From Oscillospiraceae bacterium (GTDB taxonomy: Bacteria > Bacillota > Clostridia > Oscillospirales > CAG-382), in contig SVTM01000023.1 of the NCBI GenBank assembly GCA_015063785.1, forward strand, positions 1 through 49,081: a stretch of DNA of 49,081 bases, read 5' to 3'. Position numbers and translations under genes: made by a program. Under the pieces are notes generated by a model. The model saw nothing but the letters and a program-made list of their open reading frames with translations, was not told where the DNA came from and did no database searches. Positions 7,919-20,535 of this stretch are shown piece by piece; the first letter of the stretch is position 1; every line of letters starts with the position of its first letter.

Positions 7919-8560
7919 TCAATATCCAAGCTCCTCGCCCACAAGGATGACCTTTACCCTTTCGGGGGTCATCTGGCGGCCCATTATCACGGTGTCTGCG
8001 CAGATGCGTCTGTCGCTCTTGCAATCAAGGCATTTGCCCGTGACGGTGCAGGGGGTGCCACAGTCAAGCCGCACGCAGTTTGCGGGGGCGGCAAGCTCTC
8101 TTACCCTTTGCTCTGCCTCGTCAAGGTTGCGGACTATCTTGTTGTAGCCTGCAATAACTATGACGCTTTTGGGGCCGTATACCATGGCGGCAACGCGGTT
8201 TCCGCTGCCGTCCACGTTGTAAAGCTTTCCGTCCTCGGTGATGGCGTTGGTGCTGCAAAGATATGCATCACACGAAAAAGCCTTGCGGTGAACCTCGCCG
8301 ATCTGCTCTTTTGAAAGTCCGGGCTCGTAGCGGTCGAAGAAGGTGTACTTTCCCGAGCGCAGAAAATCAATGGCGCCGATCTCGAAAAGAGTCATCGAGC
8401 CGCCGACGGCGACTGTGGCTTCCTCGTCGAGCAAAGTTTCGAGTATTTCAAGCGCCTCTTCGCCGTTGTCGGCGCATACGGCGTAGAAATTGTTGCGGCG
8501 CAAAGCTTCGGCTGTGCGCTCCATACGCAGACGGATTATTTCATATTTGTTTCTATCCAT
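7919..8560 (-). CDS. LUD-domain (lactate utilisation / DUF162) protein
   Basis: Member of the LUD family, named from lactate-utilisation proteins LutB and LutC; stand-alone versions have no firmly established reaction. The 213 residues contain the family's GGSMTLFEIG segment (about 53-62), the STNAITEDGKLYNVDGSGNR block (about 103-122), and a C-terminal Cys-rich region CGTPC..TGKCLDCKSDRRIC that could hold a metal or iron-sulfur centre. ATG 8560 follows GGAGG. It is the first gene of a minus-strand operon (LUD, trmL, two lipoproteins, transferase). No lactate dehydrogenase or permease lies nearby, so a role in lactate use is not supported by context. Confidence 0.9.
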   Translation of the reverse strand: MDRNKYEIIRLRMERTAEALRRNNFYAVCADNGEEALEILETLLDEEATVAVGGSMTLFEIGAIDFLRSGKYTFFDRYEPGLSKEQIGEVHRKAFSCDAYLCSTNAITEDGKLYNVDGSGNRVAAMVYGPKSVIVIAGYNKIVRNLDEAEQRVRELAAPANCVRLDCGTPCTVTGKCLDCKSDRRICADTVIMGRQMTPERVKVILVGEELGY

Positions 8561-8598
8561 CCGTATAATACCTCCACAATAACGTATTCATACAAAAT

Positions 8599-8627
8599 AT
8601 TATACTACACATTTTTCACAAAAGCAA
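8599..8627 (-). promoter_or_regulatory. Sigma-A type promoter of the LUD-trmL-lipoprotein operon
   Basis: On the minus strand, TTGCTT (8627-8622), a 17-base spacer and TATAAT (8604-8599). The rest of the 300-base gap up to 8861 contains no further gene that I can support. It has a T-rich tract and a possible plus-strand TTGATT near 8788 ahead of the next gene, too weak to list separately. Confidence 0.7.
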
Positions 8628-8861
8628 GAGTTTTTGTTCATAACTCCTCTTTTTTTATGCAAATCTTCAAATCGACGCTTCAGACGTCGGTGACGAGTTT
8701 CGACATTTTGTTAAAAAAGAGTTCACACGTTTTTACCGCATCCGACCGCCCCTTGTGCAAAACAACAAGCCACACCTCCAAAAGGCTTGATTTTGTGCGG
8801 CATCAATGATAATCTTTGGGCTAGTGCTGTTTGGCACAATAATCCGAAAGAAGGAACGTCC

Positions 8862-9128
8862 ATGATGTGCCAAAAGAACAGCGAAAAAGCCTGTCTTTGC
8901 TCTGCCGAAATAACTTCAGAAAGAATAAAGCACGGGCAATGCGAGCTTGTTATTTACGGCATCCGTGTATACTGTATGAAAAAACTTGTCGCCGAATACC
9001 CCGATATCACAGACGACCAAAAAAAGATAGCAGAGCTTTTTTCGTTGCTCGACGGCGCCGACCTTGATTGCAACCATATAAACGACGTTATAGAAGACTT
9101 TGTTGATGCGCTTTACTCTTTGCCGTAA
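8862..9128 (+). CDS. Small cysteine-containing protein of unknown function
   Basis: Hypothetical protein of 88 residues (87 if the second of two adjacent ATGs is used). I do not recognise its family. The start is placed at ATG 8862 after AAGGA; the frame is open 75 bases upstream without a site. The N-terminal part has four cysteines (MMCQ, KACLCS, HGQCEL), then YGIRVYCMKK, and an acidic helical C-terminal half (IAELFSLLDGADLDCNHINDVIEDFVDAL). No signal peptide or membrane segment. It sits just ahead of the sigma-K-like promoter of spoVFA on the same strand, but nothing else ties it to sporulation. Confidence 0.6.
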   Translation: MMCQKNSEKACLCSAEITSERIKHGQCELVIYGIRVYCMKKLVAEYPDITDDQKKIAELFSLLDGADLDCNHINDVIEDFVDALYSLP

Positions 9129-9131
9129 GTG

Positions 9132-9159
9132 ACCGAATCATCGCGTCCTACATACTATA
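9132..9159 (+). promoter_or_regulatory. Mother-cell (sigma-K type) promoter of spoVFA
   Basis: The box CATACTATA at 9151-9159 is a full match to the sigma-K -10 pattern CATAnnnTA. AC at 9132-9133 lies 17 bases upstream, as expected for the short sigma-K -35. The TTG start of spoVFA is 28 bases downstream. In B. subtilis the spoVF operon is transcribed by sigma-K, so both sequence and context agree. The motif is short, so a sigma-E contribution cannot be excluded. Confidence 0.7.
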
Positions 9160-9186
9160 ACAAAAAACATCAAAGGACTGATTTTT

Positions 9187-10005
9187 TTGAATAAACCGGG
9201 CAAAGCCGCCGTTATCGGCGGCGACGAAAGGTGCGCGGTGTGTGCCGAGCTTTTTGCAAAAAGCGGTGTGGAATGTGCAGTTTTCGGGCTTGAAAAAAGC
9301 GGAATTTCTTCCTCTGCCACAAAGGCGGCGTCGATTGCCGACGCCGTGTGTGAAAGCGATATTTTGATTTTGCCGCTTCCTGTGATGAGCGACAGTGCAA
9401 GGATTTTTTCTCCCCTGTCAGACGCAAACATACTGCTTTCGGACGTGATTGGAAATGTATCGGAAAAAACCGTAATATTTGCAGGAAATCCGCAGAAATG
9501 CTTCTTTTCTGCCATTGAGAACGCAGGTCTTTGCAACGAGATCATAAACTACACAAAAAGTGACCTTTTTGCAGTACTTGGCGGTGTTCCCACGGCTGAG
9601 GGAGCGATTATCGAGGCGATAAACGCCACGGGAAAAACCGTTTCGTCCTCAAAAGTGCTGGTCGTGGGCTTTGGACGGGTGGGAAAACAGCTTTCGTCTC
9701 TTTTAAAAGCCATGAACGCAGACGTCACCGTCACCGCGCGCAAGTCCACCGACCTTGCCCTTATCAAATCCTGCGGAATGAGGGCCGAAAAAACGGGCGA
9801 TATTTCCAAAACAAAAAGCAGATTTGATATCATCTTCAACACCGTGCCTGCCTGCATTTTTGACGAAAAGACGCTGAAAGCAATAAAGGGCAGACCCGTC
9901 ATCATCGAGCTTGCTTCAAAACCCTACGGGGAGGGCTTTAAACGCAAAAAAAGGCGCCGCAGTGCGCCGCAGTTTGTTGAAAAACTATTTATAAAAGTTT
10001 TTTGA
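9187..10005 (+). CDS. spoVFA: Dipicolinate synthase subunit A, N-terminal part (split gene)
   Basis: Subunit A of the enzyme that oxidises a dihydrodipicolinate-pathway intermediate to dipicolinic acid in the mother cell; DPA is then loaded into the spore core. Start is TTG 9187 after AAAGGA. Residues 1-248 (to base 9930) are normal for the family: an N-terminal domain, GGVPTAEGAI at about 138-147, the Rossmann motif VGFGRVGKQ near 159, and IIELASKP at 239-246. After SKPYG the family sequence stops. The frame runs 24 codons into unrelated DNA (GEGF then KRKKRRR) to a stop at 10003-10005. The missing C-terminal 47 residues are encoded at 15884-16027 in matching phase. Joined at the shared GGGG the product would be 295 residues, close to my recollection of just under 300 for B. 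subtilis SpoVFA. As it stands the product lacks the conserved C-terminal block and is probably inactive. Confidence 0.92.
   Translation: MNKPGKAAVIGGDERCAVCAELFAKSGVECAVFGLEKSGISSSATKAASIADAVCESDILILPLPVMSDSARIFSPLSDANILLSDVIGNVSEKTVIFAGNPQKCFFSAIENAGLCNEIINYTKSDLFAVLGGVPTAEGAIIEAINATGKTVSSSKVLVVGFGRVGKQLSSLLKAMNADVTVTARKSTDLALIKSCGMRAEKTGDISKTKSRFDIIFNTVPACIFDEKTLKAIKGRPVIIELASKPYGEGFKRKKRRRSAPQFVEKLFIKVF
9915..9942 (+). other. Left attachment junction (attL candidate)
   Basis: The spoVFA coding sequence ends and the element begins around CGGGG (9927-9931). The element-side arm is GGAGGGCTTTAAA (9930-9942). Aligned with the right junction, AAAACCCTACGGGGAGG matches AAAATCCGCCGGGGTGG at 13 of 17 positions. 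The true crossover could be at any point within the shared bases. Confidence 0.65.
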
Positions 10006-10183
10006 TAAAACTTTTTTTCAAAAAAGTTTTCGGTGTTAAGAGGCAGCGCCTCTTATCGCTCTCCGCAGAGAGCGAAATCCCCTTTAGCGTGCGCAAAGCG
10101 CAGGAGTGGGTGAATTTTCAACCGCTTTACGGTTGAAAAGAGGGCGAACCCTCGCCGGGGGTTCGCCCTGATTATTTACAAAA
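9994..10183 (+). repeat. Hairpin-rich dispersed repeat, copy A
   Basis: About 190 bp made of successive inverted repeats: 10007-10030 (A/T-rich), 10038-10054 (AAGAGGC/GCCTCTT), 10057-10074 (CGCTCTC/GAGAGCG), 10115-10139 (TTTTCAACCG/CGGTTGAAAA) and 10142-10168 (GGGCGAACC/GGTTCGCCC), with GCGCAGGAGTGGGTGAA between the third and fourth. A close copy lies inverted at 30317-30504. Differences in hairpins 2 and 4 fall in the loops. The repeat has no coding potential. The 12-bp sequence CCGCAGTGCGCC occurs as a direct repeat on both sides (9957-9968 and 10209-10220). It occupies the non-coding left end of the intervening element. Confidence 0.85.
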
Positions 10184-10237
10184 GACTTTTTCTACAGTCT
10201 GTGGCTCACCGCAGTGCGCCCTTTTGTTGATAATATA

Positions 10238-11824
10238 TTATTTTCCGCCGAGGCTGTCGGTTACATCAACGGTAACCTTCTTGTTGTAGCACGAGAACAT
10301 ACTGTCAAGATCCTTCTTTTCAAGCTTCTTGGTAAAGAGGCTGACAATGGGTACGAGGATAAGTCCTCCGACCATGGCAAAAACGCCCGAGTAAAGCGAA
10401 TTGGTGAAGACAAATCCGACAAAACCGTCGGGGGCGATGGCAAGTACGCCAAAGTCCTTGAGAAGCTGGATTATCTCAATTCCCGTACCGAAAACAAAAC
10501 AGGTTGCAACTGCTATCTTTGTGGTTCCCTTCCAGTACAGACCGTAAATGAAGGGGGCAAGGAATGCGCCTGCAAGAGCACCCCACGAAACGCCCATCAT
10601 CTGCGCGATGAAGGTGAATCCGGGGAACATATCCTTGATAATAGCGATAGCCGCCGACACTGCGATGAAGAAAACTATGAAAATTCTGAGGGTAAGAAGC
10701 TTTTTCTTTTCGGTCATCGAGCCGCTCTTTTTCTTTTCGCAAGCAGGTGAAATGACGTCAAGAGTAAGAGTTGAGCTTGATGTAAGCACCAGCGATGAAA
10801 GAGTCGACATGGAAGCTGCAAGCACGAGAACAATGACAACTGCAACGATTATCGGCTCGAGATTCTGGAGCATCGAGGGAACGATGCGGTCGTTCATCAG
10901 CTTGCCGTTTACATACAGCGCTTCGCTGTCAAACAGTCTGCCAAATCCACCAAGGAAGTAGCAGCCGCCTGCAACGATTATTGCAAAGATGGTGGAAATG
11001 ATAGTGCCCTTGCGGATGGAATCCTCGTTTTTGATCGAATAGAATTTTCCGACCATCTGAGGAAGTCCCCAGGTGCCAAGCGAAGTGAGCAGCACGACGA
11101 TGAGCAAGAACACGGGGTTCGGGCCAAGGAAGGAAGCAAAGGTTCCGGGAGTTTCGGAGGGAATAGATGCAAGCGAGTTGTAGGCTTCCATAAAGCCGCC
11201 CTTGTTGGCAAGCACCGAGCCGATAACGGCAACGATGCCGACGAGCATGATGATGCCCTGAATAAAATCGTTTATGGCGGTTGCCATGTAACCGCCGAAC
11301 ACAACGTATACACCGGTAAGCACCGCCATCACAAGGATGACAACCCAGTAAGGCACGTTGAAGGTGGTTTCAAAAAGACTGGAAAGTCCGTTGTAAAGTG
11401 AAGCTGTGTAAGGAATGAGGAAGATGAAAACAATAAAGGAAGCCGCGATCTTAAGGCCCTTTGACATATATCTTTTCTCAAAAAAGTCGGGCATGGTCTT
11501 GCTCTCAAGATGCTGTGTCATAACTCTTGTTCTTCTGCCGAGTATCACCCATGCAAGAAGCGAGCCGATAAAGGCATTTCCAAGGCCGATCCATGTGGAA
11601 GCCATACCGAACGCCCAACCAAACTGGCCGGCATATCCGACAAAAATTACCGCCGAGAAGTAAGAGGTTCCGTAGGCAAATGCTGTGAGCCACGGGCCCA
11701 CCGAACGTCCACCGAGAACAAAGCCGTCTACGTTTGTGGAATGCTTGCGGCAGTAAAGACCTACGCTTATCATTACTGCAAAAAAGATCACGAGCATTAT
11801 GGATGTGATTACTGTTGTACCCAT
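10238..11824 (-). CDS. Sodium:solute symporter (SSS family), T-box controlled
   Basis: Integral membrane Na+-coupled uptake protein of 528 residues with about 13 hydrophobic segments, in the PutP/SSS family. The N-terminal region has the typical GGRSVGPWLTAFAYGTSYFS loop after helix 1, and further family features are MPDFFEKRY and FGGYMATAINDFIQG. Start is ATG 11824 behind AAGAAGG. The gene sits under its own promoter (12161-12189) and a T-box leader whose candidate specifier codon is UAC (Tyr), so an amino acid, plausibly tyrosine or a related aromatic, is the likely substrate. This is inferred from the regulator, not from the protein. It is inside the spoVFA-intervening element, on the opposite strand. 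Confidence 0.88.
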   Translation of the reverse strand: MGTTVITSIMLVIFFAVMISVGLYCRKHSTNVDGFVLGGRSVGPWLTAFAYGTSYFSAVIFVGYAGQFGWAFGMASTWIGLGNAFIGSLLAWVILGRRTRVMTQHLESKTMPDFFEKRYMSKGLKIAASFIVFIFLIPYTASLYNGLSSLFETTFNVPYWVVILVMAVLTGVYVVFGGYMATAINDFIQGIIMLVGIVAVIGSVLANKGGFMEAYNSLASIPSETPGTFASFLGPNPVFLLIVVLLTSLGTWGLPQMVGKFYSIKNEDSIRKGTIISTIFAIIVAGGCYFLGGFGRLFDSEALYVNGKLMNDRIVPSMLQNLEPIIVAVVIVLVLAASMSTLSSLVLTSSSTLTLDVISPACEKKKSGSMTEKKKLLTLRIFIVFFIAVSAAIAIIKDMFPGFTFIAQMMGVSWGALAGAFLAPFIYGLYWKGTTKIAVATCFVFGTGIEIIQLLKDFGVLAIAPDGFVGFVFTNSLYSGVFAMVGGLILVPIVSLFTKKLEKKDLDSMFSCYNKKVTVDVTDSLGGK

Positions 11825-11878
11825 TTAAAAACCTTCTTTCTGTAGTAAATTTGAGCGGAAAACGGCATCAAAATGGAT

Positions 11879-12154
11879 AAAAAAACACCGTCCTCCGAAA
11901 AGAGGACGGCGAAAATGCACCGTGGTACCACCTCAATTTACCGCCGTGTCACCATGGCGGCCTCATCAGGCACAAAAAACATGCCTTATTGCTGTAACGG
12001 GCAAACCCGGCGCAGCCTACTTGCCAAAAAAAGGCTTTTGGTGTGCAGCTCGCAGGATGTATTCGCGGCGTATATTCCCTTCTGTCTCGCACCAACCGAC
12101 AGTTCTCTTGAGGGAAACGCTGCACCGCTACTTGTTCCCGGTCATCGCTTCTTG
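11879..12154 (-). promoter_or_regulatory. T-box riboswitch leader, candidate tyrosine specifier
   Basis: On the minus strand the leader has a Stem I with AGAGAAC and a GGUUGG loop, the conserved T-box AGGTGGTACCACGG (11933-11920), and a strong terminator CCGTCCTC/GAGGACGG (11888-11909) followed by seven U. In the specifier region GAA-UAC-AUCC occurs, with UAC at 12061-12059, which would read tRNA-Tyr. The T-box bulge is UGGU, which pairs with an A discriminator base as in tRNA-Tyr. Uncharged tRNA should favour antitermination and symporter expression. Confidence 0.88.
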
Positions 12155-12160
12155 TGGTGT

Positions 12161-12189
12161 ATTTTACACCCTCAAAACGCATTTGTCAA
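12161..12189 (-). promoter_or_regulatory. Promoter of the symporter T-box transcript
   Basis: On the minus strand, TTGACA (12189-12184), a 17-base spacer and TAAAAT (12166-12161), just ahead of the T-box leader. Confidence 0.8.
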
Positions 12190-12222
12190 GGTTTTTTTGC
12201 AAAAAAATCAAAATTATTTTTT

Positions 12223-13113
12223 TCACAAACTTTTGTATCGCAATAATAAAATACCCGCCCTTTCAAAAATTTCTCTGGAAACAAGCCCCTTGTGCGAAAA
12301 GGGAGCTACAAAGCGGGATGATGCATCGGTTTTTGTGCGTTTTTTTGATTTGTAGCTGATCTTTTTTACAAAACCCTGGGTCAGATCGCCGACGTAGGTG
12401 GGGTTTGAAAGAATGCGCTTTATCATAACCGAATTCCAGACGGCACTCCCCTTTTCCCTGCCGAATTTATACGCCGAAGGGGTAAGAACGCCGTCCGAAG
12501 TCAGCGATTTTGCAATTGAAAGCATGCTTTTTCCGCCGACAAATTCGCAAAAAATGCGATCAACAACATCTTTGGTTTTTTCGTCGGGGACAAGTTTTCC
12601 CTTATCATTTTCGGACTTTTTGTAGCCGTATGGAGCAAGACTTCCGATGAATTTGCCGGCATTTCGTTTTGCATCAAGTGCCGCGCGAACTTTTTTGCTG
12701 ATATCCTTTGCGTACATATCGTTAAATACGGCACGAAAGGCGATCATTTCGTTGCCTCCGCTGTCTTTTGCTGTGTCTACGCCGTCGTTTGCGGCGATAT
12801 AGCGCAGGCCGTTTTCGGGGAAATACCGCTCGATATATTCGCCTGTGGCAATATAATCCCTGCCGAGCCGCGACATATCCTTGGTTATAATAGTACAAAA
12901 AAGTCCTTTTTTCGCATCGTCCAACATTCTTATAAAATCGGGACGTTGAAAGGATGTGCCCGAAAATCCGTCGTCGATATACTCCGCCACGATATCAAAG
13001 CCGTTTTTGCGGCAAAATTCTTCAAGATACATTCTCTGTCCCGAAATGCTTTCGGATTCTCCCGTCGTTTTGTCATCCCGTGACAAACGCAGATAAATTG
13101 CCGCCCTTTCCAA
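12223..13113 (-). CDS. Serine site-specific recombinase, short form
   Basis: DNA recombinase of the large-serine family, 296 residues from the TTG at 13113, chosen because GGGGAGG lies 9 bases upstream; an ATG at 13137 is in frame but lies within the hairpin and has no site. The N-terminal catalytic domain has AAIYLRLSRDD with the nucleophile Ser at about residue 10, ISGQR near 23, DDGFSGT, and KDMSRLGRD near 79-87. The recombinase domain follows (GSLAPYGYKK, WNSVMIKRILSNPTYVGD, SHKGLVSREIFERA). The protein ends there: the zinc-ribbon and coiled-coil region, usually another ~200 residues, is absent, and I find no remnant downstream. It is the best candidate for excising the element, but may need a partner or be decaying. 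No mother-cell promoter could be recognised upstream. Confidence 0.88.
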   Translation of the reverse strand: MERAAIYLRLSRDDKTTGESESISGQRMYLEEFCRKNGFDIVAEYIDDGFSGTSFQRPDFIRMLDDAKKGLFCTIITKDMSRLGRDYIATGEYIERYFPENGLRYIAANDGVDTAKDSGGNEMIAFRAVFNDMYAKDISKKVRAALDAKRNAGKFIGSLAPYGYKKSENDKGKLVPDEKTKDVVDRIFCEFVGGKSMLSIAKSLTSDGVLTPSAYKFGREKGSAVWNSVMIKRILSNPTYVGDLTQGFVKKISYKSKKRTKTDASSRFVAPFSHKGLVSREIFERAGILLLRYKSL

Positions 13114-13120
13114 AACAAAA

Positions 13121-13167
13121 AACCTCCCCTTTGCCATATGGTAAATACTTATGGCAAAAGAGAGGTT
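13121..13167 (-). terminator. Hairpin that ends the editing-gene transcript and covers the recombinase ribosome binding site
   Basis: An 18-bp stem including two G-U pairs (minus-strand arms 13167-13150 and 13138-13121) with an 11-base loop. Its 3' arm, TATGGCAAAGGGGAGGTT, contains the GGGGAGG site of the recombinase, and UUUUUU runs on directly. It can act as a terminator for the gene upstream and would hide the recombinase start in read-through RNA. Confidence 0.75.
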
Positions 13168-13181
13168 TTAATTCTTAAAAA

Positions 13182-13721
13182 TCAGAGCTCGACCTTGGTA
13201 TAACCGTATCCAAGGGCAGGAAGTATCTTTTCGGTGAGATCAGATGTCTTTATTTTAAGGCTTGACGTGTTTTCGCAGGGGTGACAGCCGAAAAATTCGC
13301 TTTTTAGAACGTCGGCGTCAATGAGCAGGCGAACTTCCCTGTCTGTGTCGAAGATAAGACCGAGAACGCTGGCAGAGCCGGGGGTGGTGCCGATGTATTT
13401 TTCCATATTTTCGGGGCTTGCAAACGACAGGCGTGAGGAATCTATCTGTGCCGAAAGATCCTTGGTCTTAAAGGGCTTGTCGCCCGGCATCATAAGGAGA
13501 TAAAACGAGGTACACTGGCGGTTACACAAGAAAAGGTTTTTGCATATCAAAGAACCGAGAGCCGCATCGATCTTTTCGCAGACCTCCATGGTCATGGCAG
13601 GCTCGTGGTCGGCGCGCTCGAAGCAAACGCCCGCCTTTTCGAGAAAATCGTACACTTTTATTTCTTTTTCGCTTCTACCCTCGTTTGTTTCGGGTCTGCC
13701 CGAAAAAAGTTTAATTTCCAC
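13182..13721 (-). CDS. Prolyl-tRNA editing (YbaK/ProX-type) deacylase
   Basis: Trans-editing enzyme of the INS/YbaK superfamily that removes wrongly attached amino acids (typically Ala) from tRNA-Pro. Length 179 residues. The characteristic blocks are ICKNLFLCNRQ with the catalytic-site Lys at about 61, FYLLMMPGDKPFKTKDLS, RLSFASPENMEKYIGTTPGS, and FGCHPCENTSSL with the conserved Gly-His-Pro near 146. Start is GTG 13721 after GAGGA; it overlaps the end of the preceding membrane-protein gene by 11 bases, so the two are coupled. Related proteins are called PrdX where they sit in proline-reductase operons; no such operon is here. It lies inside the intervening element. Confidence 0.88.
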   Translation of the reverse strand: MEIKLFSGRPETNEGRSEKEIKVYDFLEKAGVCFERADHEPAMTMEVCEKIDAALGSLICKNLFLCNRQCTSFYLLMMPGDKPFKTKDLSAQIDSSRLSFASPENMEKYIGTTPGSASVLGLIFDTDREVRLLIDADVLKSEFFGCHPCENTSSLKIKTSDLTEKILPALGYGYTKVEL

Positions 13722-14118
13722 TTTTGTTTTCCTCTTTCTTGCTCTCGTGTTTTTCTTTCAGTTCTTCTTTTTTGCCCTTTGCCTTTTCATAAAGCTCGTG
13801 CAGAAGGCCAAGTGTTTTTTCATCATTGGGAAAAAGCAACTTCAAAAGTACAAGAGCTATGGCGACGGTTATGATTTTTTCGGGGGTAAAGGGTATCCAC
13901 AAAAGGGCGAGATATCCGCCCCCCACAGCCATCATCCATGGGATGCCGAGCCAGGTGCCCAACGCCAGCATGATATATGCCCAGCCGTTGGTTATCATCC
14001 AGCCGATGCCAAAGCAGAGAAGAAAGCGCGGATTCACGACGAGCATGATTATCTTTTTTGCCCATTCTTTTGTTTTTTTCCAAAAACTTGCCCACGTAAG
14101 TTTTTCTTTGTTTTTCAA
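13711..14118 (-). CDS. Small membrane protein of unknown function
   Basis: Hypothetical protein of 135 residues. I chose TTG 14118 because AAAGGA is 7 bases upstream; the frame remains open to 14235, but that part looks non-coding (Phe/Lys-rich, no site). A charged N-terminus (KNKEKLTWASFWKK) is followed by three or four hydrophobic segments: IIMLVVNPRFLLCFGIGWMI, WAYIMLALGTWLGI, MMAVGGGYLALLWI and IITVAIALVLLKLLF. A highly charged coiled-coil-like tail (KAKGKKEELKEKHESKKEE) ends the protein. The family is not recognised. It overlaps the editing-protein gene downstream by 11 bases. Confidence 0.7.
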   Translation of the reverse strand: MKNKEKLTWASFWKKTKEWAKKIIMLVVNPRFLLCFGIGWMITNGWAYIMLALGTWLGIPWMMAVGGGYLALLWIPFTPEKIITVAIALVLLKLLFPNDEKTLGLLHELYEKAKGKKEELKEKHESKKEENKSGN

Positions 14119-14233
14119 TTTATTTTCCTTTGTTTCACTTTTATCGTAAATATTACACAGTTTAATTTTATCAAATTTTGTCGGTTTGTCAAGAAGAAAA
14201 ACGAAAGAACGAAAAAAAGAGGGCTTTAATTGC

Positions 14234-14268
14234 AAAAAATCAGCGCCCGACCTTTTGGCACGGGCGCT
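14234..14268 (-). terminator. Terminator of serS
   Basis: Minus-strand stem AGCGCCCG/CGGGCGCT with an 11-base loop, followed by GAUUUUUU. It starts 10 bases after the serS stop. Confidence 0.88.
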
Positions 14269-14277
14269 TTTGTATGA

Positions 14278-15564
14278 TTACTTTTTGGGAAGGATCTTTT
14301 CCTGTCCGCCCATGTAGGGGCGCAGAGCGACGGGAATGTTTACGCTGCCGTCGGCGTTGAGGTTGTTTTCGAGGAATGCAATGAGCATTCTGGGAGGAGC
14401 AACCACGGTGTTGTTGAGGGTGTGGGCGAGATATTTGGAATCCTTGCCATTCACTCTGATCTTAAGTCTTCTTGCCTGAGCATCGCCGAGGTTAGAGCAG
14501 CTGCCGACTTCGAAATACTTCTTCTGTCTGGGCGACCATGCTTCGACGTCAACCGACTTGACCTTAAGGTCTGCAAGGTCTCCCGAGCAGCACTCGAGAG
14601 TTCTTACGGGAATATCCATCGAGCGGAAGAGATCGACTGTGTTCTGCCAGAGCTTGTCGAACCACATGGGGCTGTCCTCGGGCTTGCAGACAACGATCAT
14701 TTCCTGCTTTTCAAACTGGTGGATGCGGTAAACACCGCGCTCCTCGATGCCGTGGGCACCCTTTTCCTTGCGGAAGCAGGGGGAATAGCTGGTGAGAGTC
14801 TGGGGAAGCTGTTCTTCGGGGATGATCTGATCGATGAACTTGCCTATCATCGAATGCTCGGAGGTACCGATGAGATAGAGGTCTTCGCCCTCGATCTTGT
14901 ACATCATGGCTTCCATTTCCGCAAAGCTCATAACGCCTGTAACAACGTCCGAACGGATCATAAAGGGAGGTACGCAGTAGGTAAATCCGCGGTTTACCAT
15001 GAAATCGCGGGCATACGATATTACCGCAGAGTGGAGTCTTGCGATGTCGCCCATGAGGTAATAAAAACCGTTGCCGGCAACGCGGCGTGCGCTGTCCAGG
15101 TCGATGCCGTCAAAGCTTTCCATGATGTCTGTGTGGTAGGGGATCTCAAAATCGGGAACAACAGGTTCGCCAAATCTTTCGACTTCGACATTTTCGCTGT
15201 CATCCTTGCCGATCGGAACTGTCTTGTCGATGATCTGGGGAATGACCATCATGATCTTCTTGATCTTTTCTTCGTATTCAGCCTCAAGAGCTTCACATTC
15301 GGCAAGGCGTACAGCCTGCTCGCCGACCTTCTTTTTCATCTCTTCGGCTTCTTCCTTTTTGCCCTGTCCCATGAGGGCGCCGATCATCTTGGAGCACTTG
15401 TTGCGCTCGGCGCGAAGGCCGTCTGCCTCGAGCTTTACGGCACGAGACTGCTTGTCGAGCTCGATAACTTCGTCCACAAGGGGAAGCTTCTGCTCCTGGA
15501 ATTTGTTTTTGATGTTCTGCTTTACGATTTCGGGATTCTCTCGCAGAAATTTGATATCGATCAT
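14278..15564 (-). CDS. serS: Seryl-tRNA synthetase
   Basis: Class II aminoacyl-tRNA synthetase that charges tRNA-Ser, normally essential. Start is ATG 15564 behind GGAGGAAA, giving 428 residues, the usual bacterial size; the open frame extends 390 bases upstream through the T-box leader and is not coding. The N-terminal ~110 residues form the helical tRNA-binding arm (KFLRENPEIVKQNIK then long charged helices). The catalytic core has IGTSEHSMIGKF as the serine-specific TxE region, motif 2 with CFRKEKGAHGIEERG and HQFEKQE, and motif 3 near NNTVVAPPRMLIAFLE. The motif 2 loop GIEERG differs from the GxDTRG that I recall as common in bacteria, so it may be a divergent or second SerRS. It lies inside the intervening element with its own promoter and T-box. 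Confidence 0.93.
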   Translation of the reverse strand: MIDIKFLRENPEIVKQNIKNKFQEQKLPLVDEVIELDKQSRAVKLEADGLRAERNKCSKMIGALMGQGKKEEAEEMKKKVGEQAVRLAECEALEAEYEEKIKKIMMVIPQIIDKTVPIGKDDSENVEVERFGEPVVPDFEIPYHTDIMESFDGIDLDSARRVAGNGFYYLMGDIARLHSAVISYARDFMVNRGFTYCVPPFMIRSDVVTGVMSFAEMEAMMYKIEGEDLYLIGTSEHSMIGKFIDQIIPEEQLPQTLTSYSPCFRKEKGAHGIEERGVYRIHQFEKQEMIVVCKPEDSPMWFDKLWQNTVDLFRSMDIPVRTLECCSGDLADLKVKSVDVEAWSPRQKKYFEVGSCSNLGDAQARRLKIRVNGKDSKYLAHTLNNTVVAPPRMLIAFLENNLNADGSVNIPVALRPYMGGQEKILPKK

Positions 15565-15605
15565 TTTCTTTTCCTCCGAAAAATATATAATAATATTTCT
15601 GACAT

Positions 15606-15826
15606 AAAAAAACAGAGTCTGTTCCCTTAAAAAATGGGACGAAAGACTCCGTGTTGCCACCCAAATTGCAATGATGTCATTGCCGCTCGTTTTCGCTGTA
15701 AGGGGCGAGCCCCGGGGTTTGTGGCCCCACGCTCCGAAAGCGGAAAAGCAAACCGCGCTTACCGCTCTCACCTGCCGCGGTATCTCTGAAAAAACGCCTG
15801 TGTCTGCCGATTCTTTCATCATAGCC
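15606..15826 (-). promoter_or_regulatory. T-box riboswitch leader of serS
   Basis: Minus-strand leader with CAGAGAUACCGC and a GGUGAGAGC region in Stem I, the T-box GGGTGGCAACACGG (15662-15649), and an imperfect terminator GAGTCTTTCGTCCC/GGGAACAGACTC followed by seven U. The bulge reads UGGC, which pairs with a G discriminator base, as in tRNA-Ser. An AGC triplet occurs in the expected specifier area, but I could not fix it with confidence. Confidence 0.85.
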
Positions 15827-15831
15827 CTACT

Positions 15832-15860
15832 ATTATACAACAATCTTCCGAAAAATGCAA
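15832..15860 (-). promoter_or_regulatory. Promoter of the serS T-box transcript
   Basis: On the minus strand, TTGCAT (15860-15855), a 17-base spacer and TATAAT (15837-15832). It lies about 20 bases inside the right end of the intervening element, so serS carries its own promoter whether integrated or on an excised circle. Confidence 0.8.
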
Positions 15861-15867
15861 GAGGAAA

Positions 15868-15895
15868 TTTAAAATCCGCCGGGGTGGATCTGAAA
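15868..15895 (+). other. Right attachment junction (attR candidate)
   Basis: The element-side arm TTTAAAATCCGCC (15868-15880) meets spoVFA sequence at GGGG (15881-15884). Joined with the left element arm GGAGGGCTTTAAA about a central GG, the reconstituted circle site is a 28-bp imperfect palindrome whose arms agree at 10 of 13 positions. Confidence 0.65.
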
Positions 15896-16027
15896 TCCGC
15901 CGAAACGCTGGGGTTCAAAACCGTGGTTGCATCGGGGCTTCCCGGAAAATACACTCCTGTTACGGCAGGAGAGATACTTTTTGAATGTATAAAGCAGGAG
16001 CTTTACGAAAGGGGTTTTGATATATGA
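15884..16027 (+). CDS. spoVFA: Dipicolinate synthase subunit A, C-terminal part (split gene)
   Basis: The last 47 codons of spoVFA: VDLKSAETLGFKTVVAS, then GLPGKYTPVTAGEIL, which is the conserved C-terminal block of SpoVFA. The preceding bases keep the frame open back to 15671, but that stretch is the serS T-box leader read on the other strand and is not a gene. There is no start codon or ribosome binding site at the junction, so this fragment is meaningful only once joined to the N-terminal part at 9187-9930. Its TGA stop overlaps the spoVFB ATG (ATGA), the usual spoVFA-spoVFB coupling. Retention of an intact frame and motif argues that it is still used. Confidence 0.9.
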   Translation: MDLKSAETLGFKTVVASGLPGKYTPVTAGEILFECIKQELYERGFDI

Positions 16028-16584
16028 TAGGCTTTTGCATGACAGGCTCGTTCTGTTCTTTTTCAAAATCGTTGGCTGTGCTTGAAAAGCTTGCCGAAAA
16101 ATACGAGATTCTCCCCATCATGTCCGAAAACGCATATTCGCTGGATACAAAATTCGGCAAAGCGGAAGAACATATAAATAAGGTGGAAGACATCTGCAAA
16201 AGGCAGATAGTACGCACCATTCCCGACGCCGAGCCGATAGGCCCTTCGGTGGTGCTCGACTGTCTTGTGGTCTGCCCCTGCACGGGAAACACCCTTTCAA
16301 AGGTCGCCCTTGGCATCACCGACACATCTGCCACCATGGCAATAAAGGCACAGCTGAGAAACTGTCGTCCGGTGCTTATTGCCCTTGCCACAAACGACGG
16401 TCTTTCGGGATCTTTTCCCAATGTTGCAAAGCTTATGCAGAGAAAAAACGTCTTTTTCGTTCCCTTTGCGCAGGATTCGCCCTTTAAAAAGAAAAACTCC
16501 ATCGTCTGCGATTTTGACAAGCTGCAAGCCGCTCTTGACGCCGCCCTTGAGGGCGAACAGCTGCAGCCGATACTTGCGACGTAG
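16024..16584 (+). CDS. spoVFB: Dipicolinate synthase subunit B
   Basis: Flavoprotein-like subunit of dipicolinate synthase, 186 residues, acting with SpoVFA in the mother cell. It has the family N-terminus IGFCMTGSFCSF (nucleotide-binding loop), then LPIMSENAY near residue 35, VCPCTGNTLSKVALGITD near 81-98, and ALATNDGLSGSFPNVA near 120. The start ATG overlaps the spoVFA stop by four bases. In the present arrangement it has no recognisable promoter of its own; the spoVFA promoter is almost 7 kb away, beyond oppositely oriented genes. Expression would therefore be expected mainly after loss of the intervening DNA. Confidence 0.93.
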   Translation: MIGFCMTGSFCSFSKSLAVLEKLAEKYEILPIMSENAYSLDTKFGKAEEHINKVEDICKRQIVRTIPDAEPIGPSVVLDCLVVCPCTGNTLSKVALGITDTSATMAIKAQLRNCRPVLIALATNDGLSGSFPNVAKLMQRKNVFFVPFAQDSPFKKKNSIVCDFDKLQAALDAALEGEQLQPILAT

Positions 16585-16694
16585 CATTTTGCTTCTGTTC
16601 AACTTTTCGTAAGATGTTTGTTTACAAAATGTTGTGGAATTTGCCTATGTTCAGTGATAGAATACCTTAAAATATCTCCAAAGGAAGTGGAAAA

Positions 16695-17216
16695 ATGCGA
16701 AGCAACAGAATAAGAAGACTCGTGATTTGCGCTCTTTTTGCGGCGCTTGCCTTTGTGGCAACCGTGATCCCCGTGCCTGTGCCGATGCTTCACGGATATG
16801 TCAACATCGGCGACAGCGTGGTGCTTTTGTGTGCATATGCGGCAGGCGGATTGTTCGGAGCTCTTGCGGCAGGTGCCGGATGCGCTATTGCGGATATAAC
16901 CCTTTCGTTCGCTCTTTACGCCCCCGCCACCTTTGTCATCAAGGCGGCAATGGCTTTTTGCGCGTGTCTTTTTTTCAAAAAGGGCGGTGTGATATTCCGA
17001 GCACTCGGTTGCGTTATTGCCGAGATCATCATGGTTTTGGGATATCTTATATTTGAATATTTCATTTACGGCGCAGGCTGTCTTGCATCGGTGCCGGGAA
17101 ACCTTGTTCAGGGCGGAGCAAACGCCGTGATCGGTTTTTGCCTTATCTCGGTGCTGTCAAAAGACAAGAATCTTACAAAATATCTGTCGGGTGGCAGCGA
17201 CGGCAAGAAACATTGA
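16695..17216 (+). CDS. ECF transporter substrate-binding (S) component
   Basis: Integral membrane protein of 173 residues with five or six hydrophobic segments, resembling the S components of energy-coupling-factor vitamin importers. The pattern fits: a basic N-terminus (MRSNRIRRL), ALAFVATVIPVPVP, the GYVNIGDSVVLLCAYAAGG loop and FGALAAGAGCAIAD. The S component binds the vitamin; the shared EcfA/EcfA'/EcfT module is not in the window, as is usual for group II systems. The ligand cannot be read from the sequence, and no vitamin riboswitch is visible in the 110-base gap upstream. Start is ATG 16695 after AAAGGAAG. Confidence 0.82.
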   Translation: MRSNRIRRLVICALFAALAFVATVIPVPVPMLHGYVNIGDSVVLLCAYAAGGLFGALAAGAGCAIADITLSFALYAPATFVIKAAMAFCACLFFKKGGVIFRALGCVIAEIIMVLGYLIFEYFIYGAGCLASVPGNLVQGGANAVIGFCLISVLSKDKNLTKYLSGGSDGKKH

Positions 17217-17267
17217 TAAAAAAATGTCATTGTTTACAAAATATTAAAAAATGTTCTGTAAAAGCTA

Positions 17268-17296
17268 TTGCTTTTTTTGTAAAAAGGTATTAAAAT
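17268..17296 (+). promoter_or_regulatory. Promoter of pfkA
   Basis: TTGCTT at 17268-17273, a 17-base spacer and TAAAAT at 17291-17296. Confidence 0.65.
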
Positions 17297-17352
17297 AATT
17301 AAAGTATTTTATTATACCGATTTGCAAAGAACAAACAGCGAGGTAAAAATAT

Positions 17353-18423
17353 ATGGCAGACAAAAAATTCAAGAGAATAGGTGTTCTCACCTCGGGCGGC
17401 GACGCTCCCGGTATGAACGCGGCAGTAAGAAGCGTTGTGAGAACAGCCATTCAGAACGGCGTTGAAGTTATGGGTATCATCGGCGGCTACAGAGGCCTTG
17501 TCGAAAACGATATGAAGCTTCTTGACGCACGCGATGTGGCAAACATCATCAACCACGGCGGCACAATGCTTTTCACAGACAGATGCCTTGAATTCAAAGA
17601 AGAATCGGGCCTTCAGAAAGCGGTCGCCACCTGCCGCGAAAACAAGATCGATGGTCTTGTTTGCATCGGCGGCGACGGCACCTTCAGAGGAGCCCAGGAT
17701 CTTACACGCCGCGGAATCCCCTGTATCGGTATCCCCGGCACCATCGACAACGATATTTCCGCAACAGACTACACCATCGGCTACGACACGGCAATGAACA
17801 CCGTTGTTGACCTGGTTGACAAGCTCCGCGACACCTGCGAATCCCACGCAAGATGCAACGTCGTCGAAGTTATGGGCAGAAACGCAGGCTACATCGCCAT
17901 CAACACCGGCCTTGCCACCGGAGCTGTGGGCATCGCCATCGAAGAATTTCCCTTTGACCTCGACGGCACCATCGAAAAGATGAAGGAGCTGAAAAAGGCA
18001 AAAAAGAGAAACTTCATCGTGATCGTTTCCGAAGCTTTCGGCAACGAATATTCCGAAAACCTTGCCAAGCGCATCGAAAAGGAAACCGAAATCGAAACAA
18101 AATTTGCCCGTCTTGCCCATGTTCAGCGTGGCGGACGCCCCACCCTTCGCGACCGCGAGCTTGCAAGCCTTATGGGCTACAAGGCAGTCGAGCTTCTGCT
18201 TGACGGCAAATCGAACCTCGTTGTCTGCATCCGCGACGAAGTGATCTGCGGAATCGACATCGAATACGCCCTCACCTACGACAAGCTTTGCAAGGGCAAG
18301 ATCAAGGCAGAGGACATCACCGGTTATTCGCAGGAGCAGGTGGCAAAAATGGTTGCCGACGCCAAGATCCGCGAAGACAGAATGCGCACATCCTACGAGA
18401 TTGCAAGCAAAATCTCTATCTGA
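17353..18423 (+). CDS. pfkA: ATP-dependent 6-phosphofructokinase
   Basis: Committed glycolytic enzyme that phosphorylates fructose 6-phosphate. Length 356 residues, slightly longer than the ~320 of classic bacterial PfkA. Motifs: LTSGGDAPGMNAA near residue 12, CIGGDGTFRGA near 99, PGTIDND with the catalytic Asp near 124, and EVMGRNAGYIA near 173. GGDGT and PGTIDND are the residues expected of ATP-using, not pyrophosphate-using, enzymes. It has its own promoter and a strong terminator, and lies directly upstream of the glycogen operon, so storage and breakdown of hexose phosphate are neighbours here. Confidence 0.95.
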   Translation: MADKKFKRIGVLTSGGDAPGMNAAVRSVVRTAIQNGVEVMGIIGGYRGLVENDMKLLDARDVANIINHGGTMLFTDRCLEFKEESGLQKAVATCRENKIDGLVCIGGDGTFRGAQDLTRRGIPCIGIPGTIDNDISATDYTIGYDTAMNTVVDLVDKLRDTCESHARCNVVEVMGRNAGYIAINTGLATGAVGIAIEEFPFDLDGTIEKMKELKKAKKRNFIVIVSEAFGNEYSENLAKRIEKETEIETKFARLAHVQRGGRPTLRDRELASLMGYKAVELLLDGKSNLVVCIRDEVICGIDIEYALTYDKLCKGKIKAEDITGYSQEQVAKMVADAKIREDRMRTSYEIASKISI

Positions 18424-18435
18424 TCGAAAATATAC

Positions 18436-18473
18436 GGGAGTATGCCGAAAGGTATACTCCCATTGGTTTTTTT
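18436..18473 (+). terminator. Terminator of pfkA
   Basis: An 11-bp stem GGGAGTATGCC/GGTATACTCCC (one G-U pair) with GAAA tetraloop, followed by T7 at 18467-18473. Confidence 0.92.
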
Positions 18474-18628
18474 AGCCACTTTTTATATTTTTTGCGCTTT
18501 TTCAATTTTTTTGAACACAAACGGAAAGTTTTAGTGCATATCTATCATATTTCCTGTTTAGTTGTAACAAACCACGGATATTTTTTAAAGAAAATCATAA
18601 AATTATATAAACTTATCGCATAAATCTA

Positions 18629-18657
18629 TTGCTTTTTTGCTCAAAAAGTTGTATAAT
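18629..18657 (+). promoter_or_regulatory. Promoter of the glycogen operon
   Basis: TTGCTT at 18629-18634, a 17-base spacer and TATAAT at 18652-18657. It is the only clear promoter I see ahead of the glg genes. The 150 bases before it are A/T-rich and hold no gene. Confidence 0.75.
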
Positions 18658-18703
18658 AATGGTACATTCTTTGTACAAAATATCGAATCGCGGTGAAAAA
18701 TGC

Positions 18704-20455
18704 ATGATAAACTTAAAAAATGACGAGATGGCGACTGTTTTTATTCCGACAGGAACGGAATTTTACGGATACCGCTATCTCGGTTTTCATATTGTCCCGG
18801 ACAACCGCGGTGAGAAATACGCCGTTTTTCGCGTTTTTGCACCAAATGCAAAAAATGTCTTCCTCGTGGGAGATTTTAACGGCTGGCAAGAAACCCACCC
18901 GATGGAACGCAAAGAAAACGGCATCTTCGAGATCTTTCTTTCCGCATCGATCCTGCATCACGGGCAGAATTACAAATACAAGATAACAACCTCCGACGGA
19001 AGACAGCTTTACAAGGCAGACCCATACGCTGTCTTTTGCGAAAGCTCACCTGCCACGGCATCAAAGATTTTTCTTTCTGCGCCATATGTGTGGCAGGATG
19101 ACGGATATATCAAAAACAGAAAAAGGCTTTTTGCCGAAAGAGGCAGGTATATTCCGCTGAATATCTACAAGCTCCTGCCGGCCTCGTGGAAGGGATGTGG
19201 AACATACAAAGCACTTTCCGACGAGCTTATTCCATACCTCAAGCAGATGGGCTACACCCACGTTATGCTGTCGGCGGTGACAAATAGCGCGTATGTCGAC
19301 GGGCAGTATCCCGGGATTTCGTCATTTTTTGTTCCTGCCACCGGCATGGGCGATCCCGACTGTTTCCGAGGTTTTGTGGATGCGCTGCACCGGGCAGGGC
19401 TCGGAGTTATTCTTGAAGGGGCACCGTCGCACTTTTCAAAGTGCGAGCAAGGTCTTTGGCGGTTTGACGGAACTCCGATTTTTGAAGGGGAGCAGCCGGA
19501 CGAAAGCGAAGATGCGCCCTTTGACCTTGGCAGCAAAAGCGTCAGAAGCTTCCTTCTTTCAAACGCGATGTTCTGGATTGATGAATACCACGTCGACGGG
19601 CTTTCGTGCGATCTTTCGCAGCATCTCGCAAGCAACCGCGAAGACGACGTTCTGTCGTTTTTTGCACAGCTTAACGACGGAATACATTCCGAATATCCGG
19701 ATATCATCACCATTGCAAAGGCTCGGCTTGCCATAGACGGCATAACCGACAGTGTGCAAAGCGGAGGGCTCGGATTTTCCTTTGCGCGTGACAGACGGCT
19801 TGAAAACGAGATTCTTTCGGCATGCGACCTTGCAGGGGCAAAGCTTTCACACTCGGCAGAACACGGGATATGCGCGCTTTCGGATAACGAAAGCTTTGTG
19901 GGCAGGCTTCGGTGTGACAGCGAGGAGCGTTTTGCCATGTCGCGGCTTCTTCTCTTTTGCATGATGCTTTCCGATTCGAAAAAGCTGACCTTTTCGGGTA
20001 GCGAGATCGGCTGGCTCGGAAAGGGAGAAAACGGTGTCGATTGGGGCTGTCTTTTCGGCGATAATTCGCTTCACAAAAAGCATCAGCTTTTCGTGCGAGA
20101 TATCGGCGCACTTTATCTCTCCTCCCCCGTTCTGTGGGAAGAGGGAAATGTGACGCAAAAAAGTATTTGCGGCTACGCGGCAAGCCTTTCACGAATATAC
20201 AGCGTTTGCGGCGCATATAAAGAAATGATAGCCGTGATAAACTTCGGAAAACAAACCATATCCGATGCCAAGATCGAAACGGGAAGCGCGGCAGGATACA
20301 AAAAGATTTTTTCCAGCGCCCTTTCGGTTTACGGTGGCTGCGAGGAAAAAGACGACACACTGTTTTTTGCAAAAAGCGAAAACGGCAAAAACTATATAAA
20401 AACAGAACTTTCACCCTTGTCGGCATACGTTTTTGAAAACGCGGACGACGGATGA
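18704..20455 (+). CDS. Branching-enzyme (GlgB)-like protein with degenerate active site
   Basis: GH13 protein of 583 residues laid out like 1,4-alpha-glucan branching enzyme: a CBM48-like domain at about 30-130 ([20 protein letters not shown]) and a TIM barrel with [29 protein letters not shown] and a C-terminal beta domain. Start is ATG 18704. The four GH13 active-site regions are altered relative to GlgB. DWVPGHF is EGAPSHF. LRVDAV is LSCDLS, keeping the nucleophile Asp303 but losing the paired Arg (Ser301). TIAEES is TIAKAR, so the acid/base Glu is Lys339. LSHDE is LSDNE. Branching activity is therefore unlikely. It heads the glycogen operon, so a structural or glucan-binding role is plausible. 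Confidence 0.85.
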
Positions 20456-20535
20456 GGGCAGCAGACCTTTTACAAAGCTTTTTACCCAGGAAAAACAAAT
20501 TCAAGACAACAATATATTTAAGGGGGCACGACCAA

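What the first reader, a model, noticed from the sequence alone, without database searches (positions are those of the whole stretch)
9187..16584. Dipicolinate synthase A gene split by a 6-kb recombinase-bearing element that can be excised in frame
Seen: the N-terminal 248 codons of spoVFA (9187-9930) and the C-terminal 47 codons (15884-16027) are separated by 5,953 bp. Both junctions share CGGGG, in the same direction and codon phase. Joining them gives an uninterrupted 295-codon gene that regains the conserved C-terminal block (GLPGKYTPVTAGEIL) and overlaps spoVFB by ATGA. A serine recombinase gene lies inside. Known: skin in sigK of B. subtilis and C. difficile is removed this way in the mother cell, and as I recall an element in spoVFB has been described in a Bacillus. 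Inference: this is a new developmentally excised element controlling spore DPA synthesis in a clostridial lineage.
Basis: partly seen in the sequence, partly recalled or inferred. Interest (0 to 1): 0.96.

Follow-up and report, generated by a model that had tools for sequence, protein, structure and literature searches.

The report
Spore gene split by excisable element
In an uncultured clostridial bacterium and three relatives, a gene whose relatives make the spore chemical dipicolinic acid is cut in two, in frame, by a DNA element that carries a shortened recombinase and the only detected copy of a likely essential gene; the element is predicted to cut itself out precisely when spores form, which would switch on production of the chemical.

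Summary
dpaA (spoVFA) is split at codon 248 by a 5,953-bp element; joined in frame it gives 295 codons followed by dpaB. The same split, at the same codon with both halves open, is in 4 of 5 genomes held for the genus (elements of 5.2 to 18.5 kb); the fifth has intact dpaA-dpaB. Of the best 120 DpaA clusters from a 5.8-billion-protein database, 22 end in the same junction signature; in a tree of the best 44 they form two clades. Both halves are under purifying selection. The element-side arms of both sites are conserved to about 14-15 bp from the centre, and the predicted circle junction is near-palindromic. The recombinase is a compact, about 296-aa form without the zinc-ribbon/coiled-coil region, in one clade of 26 compact clusters. 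In all four split genomes the only serS detected lies inside the element. Best reading: a skin-like gene-intervening element, predicted to be excised in the mother cell, restoring dpaA and the promoter-dpaB link. New features: target gene, zinc-domain-less recombinase with short sites, no recognised directionality factor, serS cargo. Excision itself was not observed.

The parts
9151..9159 (+). CATACTATA, -10-like box of a possible mother-cell (sigma-E/sigma-K type) promoter of dpaA
   Evidence: CATANNATA-type box before dpaA in 5 of 5 genus genomes, read by eye; the sigma-K consensus is recalled; weak
9187..9930 (+). dpaA (spoVFA) N-terminal half, 248 codons
   Evidence: Pfam DpaA_N 8.5e-21; dN/dS 0.24 G000 v G003
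9915..9942 (+). attL, 28-bp site, centre between 9928 and 9929
9929..15881 (.). intervening element, 5,953 bp
   Evidence: conserved in G002, G003, G004
10238..11824 (-). sodium:solute symporter (SSF) cargo gene
   Evidence: Pfam SSF 2e-51
11899..12154 (-). T-box leader upstream of the symporter gene
   Evidence: Rfam RF00230, 106.8 bits, gathering score 93
12223..13113 (-). compact serine recombinase (about 296 aa from a TTG start): catalytic and recombinase domains only, no zinc ribbon found
13119..13169 (-). 20-bp hairpin before the recombinase, its 3' arm holding the ribosome-binding-like GGGGAGG (by eye)
   Evidence: z -5.06 here and -4.51 to -6.43 in the three relatives, with differing sequences
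13182..13721 (-). aminoacyl-tRNA editing (YbaK-like) protein, cargo; found in 3 of 4 elements
   Evidence: Pfam tRNA_edit 1.7e-23; not found in G002
13711..14235 (-). small protein of no known family (membrane-like by eye), present in 4 of 4 elements
14278..15564 (-). serS, seryl-tRNA synthetase, the only copy found in the genome
   Evidence: NCBIfam TIGR00414 above cut-off; single match in G000 and in each of G001-G004
15632..15831 (-). T-box leader of serS
   Evidence: Rfam RF00230, 82.3 bits, below the gathering score of 93
15868..15895 (+). attR, 28-bp site, centre between 15881 and 15882
15884..16027 (+). dpaA C-terminal half, 47 codons and stop
   Evidence: dN/dS 0.30 G000 v G003 over 48 codons; conserved in G002, G003, G004
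16024..16584 (+). dpaB (spoVFB)
   Evidence: Pfam Flavoprotein; NCBIfam NF006161 above cut-off, TIGR02852 just below (226.1 of 229)

Best explanation
dpaA (spoVFA) is cut in frame at codon 248 by a 5,953-bp element that carries a compact serine recombinase and the only serS gene detected in the genome, and this element is predicted to be excised in the sporulating mother cell, which would rejoin dpaA and reconnect dpaB to the dpaA promoter. Shown by sequence: the split, the frame, its conservation in four genomes, the purifying selection on both halves, the matched sites at the two ends, and the absence of the zinc-ribbon domain. Inferred: the recombinase, made during sporulation, recombines attL with attR at the central GG and releases a circle that carries serS, the symporter and the recombinase gene. 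Because it lacks the region that is modelled to block attL x attR in large serine integrases, it probably needs no directionality factor, so its expression would be the main switch. The forespore chromosome would keep the element, so the germline keeps serS. An excision in a growing cell would part serS from the replicating chromosome and so probably be lethal in time, which would hold the element in the lineage.
For: Same split with both halves in frame in 4 of 5 genus genomes; intact dpaA-dpaB in the fifth (G001, 58% complete), where no recombinase was found at 1e-60 and serS lies elsewhere. No second dpaA copy in G000. dN/dS 0.24 and 0.30 for the two halves. 22 of the best 120 DpaA clusters carry the junction signature SKPYG[AE][GED][FL] and then unrelated tails; the other 98 run on. 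In the five pairs other than G000-G003, the 14 nt of the element next to each exon agree at 10-13 positions and the following 14 nt at 1-5. Predicted circle site palindromic at 10-12 of 14 positions, P 0.00024 or less in each of four genomes. Compact recombinase clade of 26 clusters, SH-aLRT 99, none of them with a zinc ribbon in its listed Pfam domains. Of 77 next relatives in one scan, 76 read 498-523 aa from match start to stop and one is cut by its contig end. In LI integrase the RD-binding region is positions 1-12 of the half-site and the ZD motif 16-24 (PMC3783163 passages). An LI integrase lacking the coiled coil does attL x attR within one molecule (PMC5814800 passage). SpoIVA in 4 of 5 genomes, the fifth being the incomplete G001.
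Against: No reads, PCR or transcripts, so excision and timing are unobserved. No directionality factor was recognised, although published elements use one. phiC31 integrase lacking its coiled coil was inactive in vivo (PMC5814800), so loss of this region need not give a free excisionase. The gin att sites also hold only a 27-bp inverted repeat (PMC5595907), so a short dyad alone does not prove the zinc-domain-less reading. The joined site in dpaA is a poor palindrome, 7, 7, 8 and 9 of 14. On the left arm the fall in conservation beyond position 14 is partly masked by A-rich sequence. No well-conserved -35 box was seen for the recombinase. dS is saturated for several distant pairs, and the C-half is only 48 codons. 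The four genomes are related, not independent events; G003 is 80% complete with 6% contamination. dpaA halves evolve faster than dpaB (0.24 and 0.30 against 0.125). Sigma-K-family matches in 5 of 5 genomes are all below the TIGR02846 cut-off; B. subtilis in the control set is also below it.
Confidence: 0.85

Rival explanations
1. The split is permanent and dpaA is decaying; DPA is made by another route or the lineage no longer makes proper spores.
For: The halves evolve somewhat faster than dpaB; no excised form was seen; no sigma-K-family match passes its cut-off.
Against: 4 of 4 split genomes keep both halves open and in phase, dN/dS 0.24 and 0.30, site arms conserved, recombinase at dN/dS 0.12, dpaB conserved, SpoIVA present in 4 of 4 split genomes.
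Confidence: 0.04
2. The two halves work as separate polypeptides that assemble, so no excision is needed.
For: A GTG codon is the first codon after the shared GGG of the C-half in 4 of 4 split genomes.
Against: No sigma-70-like promoter was found in 15500-16100 (weak, since the scan also finds none for serS); the frame before the C-half is open for only 24 nt in G002 and the N-half ends 5 to 35 codons after the junction; dpaB would also lack the dpaA promoter; the conserved recombinase and matched sites stay unexplained.
Confidence: 0.04
3. The element is excisable, but excision is random or reversible in any cell rather than tied to the mother cell.
For: The recombinase lacks the region that gives direction to serine integrases, so the reaction could run both ways; the timing of its expression is untested.
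Against: The only serS found is on the element in 4 of 4 split genomes, so excision in a growing cell would be costly; the dpaA promoter box looks like a mother-cell type (weak); published elements in sporulation genes are excised in the mother cell (PMC6957869, PMC4191935 passages).
Confidence: 0.1
4. The interruption is an assembly artefact.
For: The named records that correspond to G002, G003 and G004 are metagenome-assembled.
Against: Both junctions lie within single contigs in four genomes with elements of 5.2 to 18.5 kb, and 22 protein clusters from several sources show the same left junction.
Confidence: 0.01

Closest known systems
vfbin, element in spoVFB of Bacillus weihenstephanensis KBAB4
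   Same: Interrupts a gene of the same two-subunit DPA synthase and is excised in sporulation (passages of PMC4191935, PMC5025042, PMC10747680, PMC6957869; primary paper not read)
   Different: Other subunit and other bacterial class; vfbin is described as carrying phage-related genes (PMC4191935 passage); no link by sequence was tested
skin elements in sigK of B. subtilis and Clostridioides difficile
   Same: Mother-cell gene split by an element with its own serine recombinase, rejoined in sporulation (passages of PMC5025042 and PMC10747680)
   Different: The C. difficile skin recombinase CD1231 has a zinc ribbon and coiled coil (PMC5025042 passage) and works with the RDF CD1234 (PMC10747680 passage); skin is prophage-like
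gin in gerE of Bacillus cereus ATCC10987
   Same: Not a prophage; short shared junction; 27-bp imperfect inverted repeat at its att sites (PMC5595907, abstract and three sections read)
   Different: 28.6 kb, three recombinases, RDF GirX, lower GC than the host; here one compact recombinase, host-like GC, no RDF recognised, and serS cargo
TnpX, SprA (YokA) and other large serine recombinases
   Same: Closest solved relatives: TnpX catalytic domain 2mhc, SprA 9dxh over residues 18-297 of 545; best Foldseek hits are the 9y66 and 9dx entries
   Different: The compact enzyme ends where the zinc ribbon of its long relative L070 begins

Membership tests
Sporulation gene-intervening element (skin, vfbin, vrin, gin, yin) | Lies inside a mother-cell sporulation gene and splits it | tested here: met
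   dpaA split at codon 248; that dpaA is a mother-cell gene is recalled knowledge
Sporulation gene-intervening element (skin, vfbin, vrin, gin, yin) | Short direct repeat at both junctions, joining restores the frame | tested here: met
   CGGGG, same phase; 295 codons after joining
Sporulation gene-intervening element (skin, vfbin, vrin, gin, yin) | Encodes a site-specific serine recombinase | tested here: met
Sporulation gene-intervening element (skin, vfbin, vrin, gin, yin) | Recombination directionality factor | tested here: inconclusive
   none recognised among the genes named; small ORFs were not tested one by one, and RDFs share little sequence (PMC5814800 passage)
Sporulation gene-intervening element (skin, vfbin, vrin, gin, yin) | Excised during sporulation | not testable with these tools
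   no reads or cultures
Prophage or prophage remnant | Phage structural or replication genes | tested here: not met
   of 5 window element proteins scanned only the recombinase matches PHROGs of integration type; symporter and editing protein match PHROGs of unknown function, serS one of unknown function and weakly one named histidyl tRNA synthetase, the small protein none; GC within one point of the surroundings in G000, G003, G002; the extra cargo of G004 was not scanned against PHROGs
Large serine recombinase | Catalytic and recombinase domains | tested here: met
   PF00239 and PF07508 above cut-off in 3 of 3 compact proteins scanned
Large serine recombinase | Zinc ribbon (PF13408) and coiled coil after the recombinase domain | tested here: not met
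   PF13408 absent in 3 of 3 compact proteins scanned (G000, G002, G004), present in the relative in L070; absent from the listed domains of the 26 compact clusters; the coiled coil was judged by length only

The most novel reading that the evidence does not exclude
A domesticated, prophage-free intervening element in which a serine recombinase has shed its zinc-ribbon/coiled-coil region, its att sites have shrunk to 28 bp to match, excision needs no directionality factor, and the only copy of an essential tRNA synthetase rides inside, so the host can neither lose the element nor excise it outside the dying mother cell.
Probability: 0.48. Interest if true: 0.88.

Novelty: new variant of a known kind. 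Interest (0 to 1): 0.83.

Why it matters
If true, DPA synthesis is controlled by DNA excision in a lineage of clostridia, a new target gene for developmental rearrangement. Carriage of the only serS on the excised DNA gives a simple reason why such elements persist and why excision must be confined to a terminal cell. The compact recombinase and its short sites offer a natural test of what the zinc-ribbon/coiled-coil region does, and possibly a small excisionase for genetic tools.

Tried and rejected
Position of G001 in a tree of joined dpaA, dpaB, serS, LUD and trmL: unresolved, support 35 and 58 at the forks in question. A DpaA tree later put the two G001-like clusters next to the 18-cluster split clade, but whether G001 never had the element or lost it is not settled. 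The two split clades need at least two changes; two insertions, transfer, or one insertion with losses are not separated. Rfam gave only the two T-boxes in 8500-17500 at E 0.1. The order-wide TIGR02853 survey (363 of 394 genomes matched, none above the cut-off, all 14 control genomes rang) listed too few rows to look for other splits and was not used for that. In viral contigs 92 stretches matched the patterns and none encoded a relative of the recombinase. A second compact recombinase clade (P0161, P0179, P0201, P0235) was chased in 391 class genomes: 5 matches at 1e-90, all with frames of 439-543 aa, so its context stays unknown. Recombinase promoter: no clear -35. Decay, two-polypeptide and assembly explanations were set aside as argued in the rivals. 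Search for prior report: spoVFB with intervening element; 4 of 4 listed; 20 of 30 listed; 17 of 17 listed; the word spoVFA occurred in none, dpaA in one; 20 of 35 listed; none found. No listed title or abstract start reports an element in spoVFA/dpaA; the library lacks most subscription journals. Searches were side searches.

Full report
Observation. dpaA begins at 9187 (TTG), and 248 codons run to 9930; the last 47 codons and stop lie at 15884-16027, overlapping dpaB by ATGA. CGGGG is shared at 9927-9931 and 15880-15884 in the same codon phase, and joining gives 295 codons without a stop. The intervening 5,953 bp carries, all on the minus strand, a sodium:solute symporter with a T-box, a serine recombinase, a YbaK-like editing protein, a small protein without a family, and serS with a T-box below the Rfam gathering score. 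The solved DpaA structures 2rir and 3d4o align with intact G001 DpaA to residues 291 and 290 of 297, that is through the part that the split removes.

Relatives. Among the 63 genomes held for the family, 59 match DpaA; 4 (G000, G002, G003, G004) show an N-half and a C-half, and none of the other 55 shows such a pair (several are cut short, and G018 has two copies). The four split genomes and one intact genome, G001, are the 5 held for the genus. G001 (58% complete) has contiguous dpaA-dpaB. Elements measure 5,953 (G000), 5,689 (G003), 5,248 (G002) and 18,542 bp (G004). The G004 element also holds an adhE-like gene, two iron-hydrogenase-domain proteins, a SpoIIE-phosphatase-domain protein and others. 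Symporter, recombinase, small protein and serS are in 4 of 4; the editing gene is in 3 of 4. GC of the element and its surroundings is 47.5/48.5 (G000), 48.4/48.3 (G003) and 39.6/39.5% (G002); G004 was not measured.

Selection. G000 against G003: dN/dS 0.24 (N-half), 0.30 (C-half, 48 codons), 0.125 (dpaB), 0.118 (recombinase), 0.036 (serS). dS is saturated in several more distant pairs. dN from G000 to the intact N-part of G001 (0.44) is like that to the split genes of G004 and G002 (0.38 and 0.48). The halves of the four genomes contain no stop or frame break.

Wider sample. In the large protein database, 5,098 of 7,996 scored candidates matched joined DpaA at 1e-20 (only the candidates sharing most words were scored) and the best 120 clusters were listed. 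Of these 120, 22 hold SKPYG[AE][GED][FL] and then an unrelated tail; the other 98 run on as in intact DpaA. All 8 clusters with 68% identity or more are of the split kind. A tree of the best 44 (22 split, 22 intact) needs two changes: a clade of 18 split clusters (support 100/96) next to two intact G001-like clusters (89/81), and a clade of 4 (100/97), with intact lineages between. For six DpaA/recombinase cluster pairs the longest contig has the same length, which suggests linkage but was not checked on the contigs; one of these lengths, 6,332, is also given for a further DpaA cluster (P0031).

Sites. Centred on the shared GGGG, the element-side arm of the left end is invariant in the four genomes at 12 of its first 14 positions and 3 of 4 at the other two; the right arm is invariant at 10 of its first 15, 3 of 4 at four and 2 of 4 at one. 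Beyond that the right end falls mostly to 2 of 4, the left end less sharply, in A-rich sequence. In the five pairs other than G000-G003 the 14 nt of the element next to each exon agree at 10-13 positions and the following 14 at 1-5. The circle site predicted by joining the arms is palindromic at 10, 11, 12 and 11 of 14 positions in G000, G003, G002 and G004; in random GG-centred pairs P is 0.00024, 0.00008, 0 of 100,000 and 0.00005. attL and attR score 8-10 and the joined dpaA site only 7-9. The site pattern, drawn up from the window's two sites, has two exact matches in the 2.5-Mb genome, these two, and one more with two mismatches; the reversed control pattern has one within two mismatches.

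Recombinase. It has catalytic and recombinase domains but no zinc ribbon, unlike the 528-aa relative in L070. A profile of the four matches SprA (9dxh) over residues 18-297 of 545. The AlphaFold model (mean pLDDT 85.1, pTM 0.61) has serine integrase complexes of the 9y66 and 9dx entries as its best Foldseek hits; TM-scores to these multi-domain chains are low (about 0.46 by query), so domain placement is not established. Of the 80 named loci kept (of 121 found), 3 are compact and 77 are not: 76 read 498-523 aa from match start to stop and one is cut by its contig end. In the protein database the 26 best clusters are 294-306 aa and form one clade with SH-aLRT 99; of the 120 listed, 39 are under 350 aa, and the other 13 are scattered, some probably fragments. 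In 394 genomes of the order, 11 match a compact member at 1e-75; the three of the genus have frames of 310-316 aa, the other 8 of 418-557 aa. In LI integrase the RD-binding region is positions 1-12 of a half-site and the ZD motif 16-24, and the coiled coils are modelled to block attL x attR unless an RDF acts (PMC3783163, passages). The short conserved arms here fit an enzyme without the zinc domain. LI integrase lacking its coiled coil does both reactions within a molecule, but phiC31 lacking it was inactive (PMC5814800, passages), and gin, with an RDF, has a 27-bp inverted repeat at its att sites (PMC5595907). So RDF-free excision is a reasoned inference, not a result.

Control. A hairpin stands directly before the recombinase gene in 4 of 4 genomes with different sequences (z -5.06, -5.60, -4.51, -6.43) and covers a ribosome-binding-like sequence; it could stop or silence read-through from the genes upstream. 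A transcript starting inside it would free the site; that is a proposal. The dpaA upstream regions share a CATANNATA box in 5 of 5. With the element in place dpaB is 5 to 18.5 kb further from that promoter, so excision would restore both subunits.

Sporulation genes. SpoIVA is found in 4 of 5 genomes, all four split ones. Sigma-K-family matches exist in 5 of 5 but below the family cut-off, in a search that also rings in 11 of 14 control genomes, so they show sigma factors of the type, not sigma-K itself.

serS. One match in G000 and one in each of G001-G004 at 1e-60. In the four split genomes it lies inside the element; in G001 it lies elsewhere, one gene away from an mnmG-like gene named by eye. 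Completeness is 97, 94, 80 and 94% for G000, G002, G003 and G004, so a second copy cannot be wholly excluded. serS is taken as essential from general knowledge. This makes loss of the element from the germline unlikely and fits confinement of excision to the mother cell.

Known systems. Published elements interrupt sigK, spoVFB, spoVR, spsM, gerE and yabG (passages of PMC4191935, PMC6957869, PMC5025042, PMC10747680; PMC5595907: abstract, introduction, first results section and discussion). Most are prophage-like, gin is not, and RDFs are reported for SP-beta, the C. difficile skin and gin. None of the passages or listings seen names an element in spoVFA/dpaA. The finding is therefore a new variant of a known kind: new target, reduced recombinase and sites, and essential cargo.

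Noticed in passing
tree, P0161, P0179, P0201, P0235: A second clade (support 100) of compact serine recombinases, 283-286 aa, apart from the dpaA clade; it may mark another reduced excision element.
   Followed up: partly
window 9943-10237: About 250 bp more lies between attL and the symporter in G000 than in G003, with hairpins, one at 10141-10169; it looks like a recent small insertion.
   Followed up: no
window 14278-15564: serS matches PHROG family phrog_16140 (unknown function) at 7e-167, so seryl-tRNA synthetases of this type occur in sequences filed as viral.
   Followed up: no
G002 contig C24:483-1355: G002 also has a second recombinase, 44% identical, with a 552-aa frame, about 100 kb from the element.
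   Followed up: no
L033 and L037 (G004 contig C16, about 14-28 kb): The 18.5-kb element of G004 holds ordinary-looking metabolic genes (adhE-like, hydrogenase-domain; an FAD oxidoreductase-like gene by eye, whose relative also neighbours serS in G001), so the element may grow by taking in chromosomal genes.
   Followed up: partly
window 17353-24322: Downstream of dpaB lie phosphofructokinase and, by eye from the G002 equivalents, a glycogen gene cluster.
   Followed up: no
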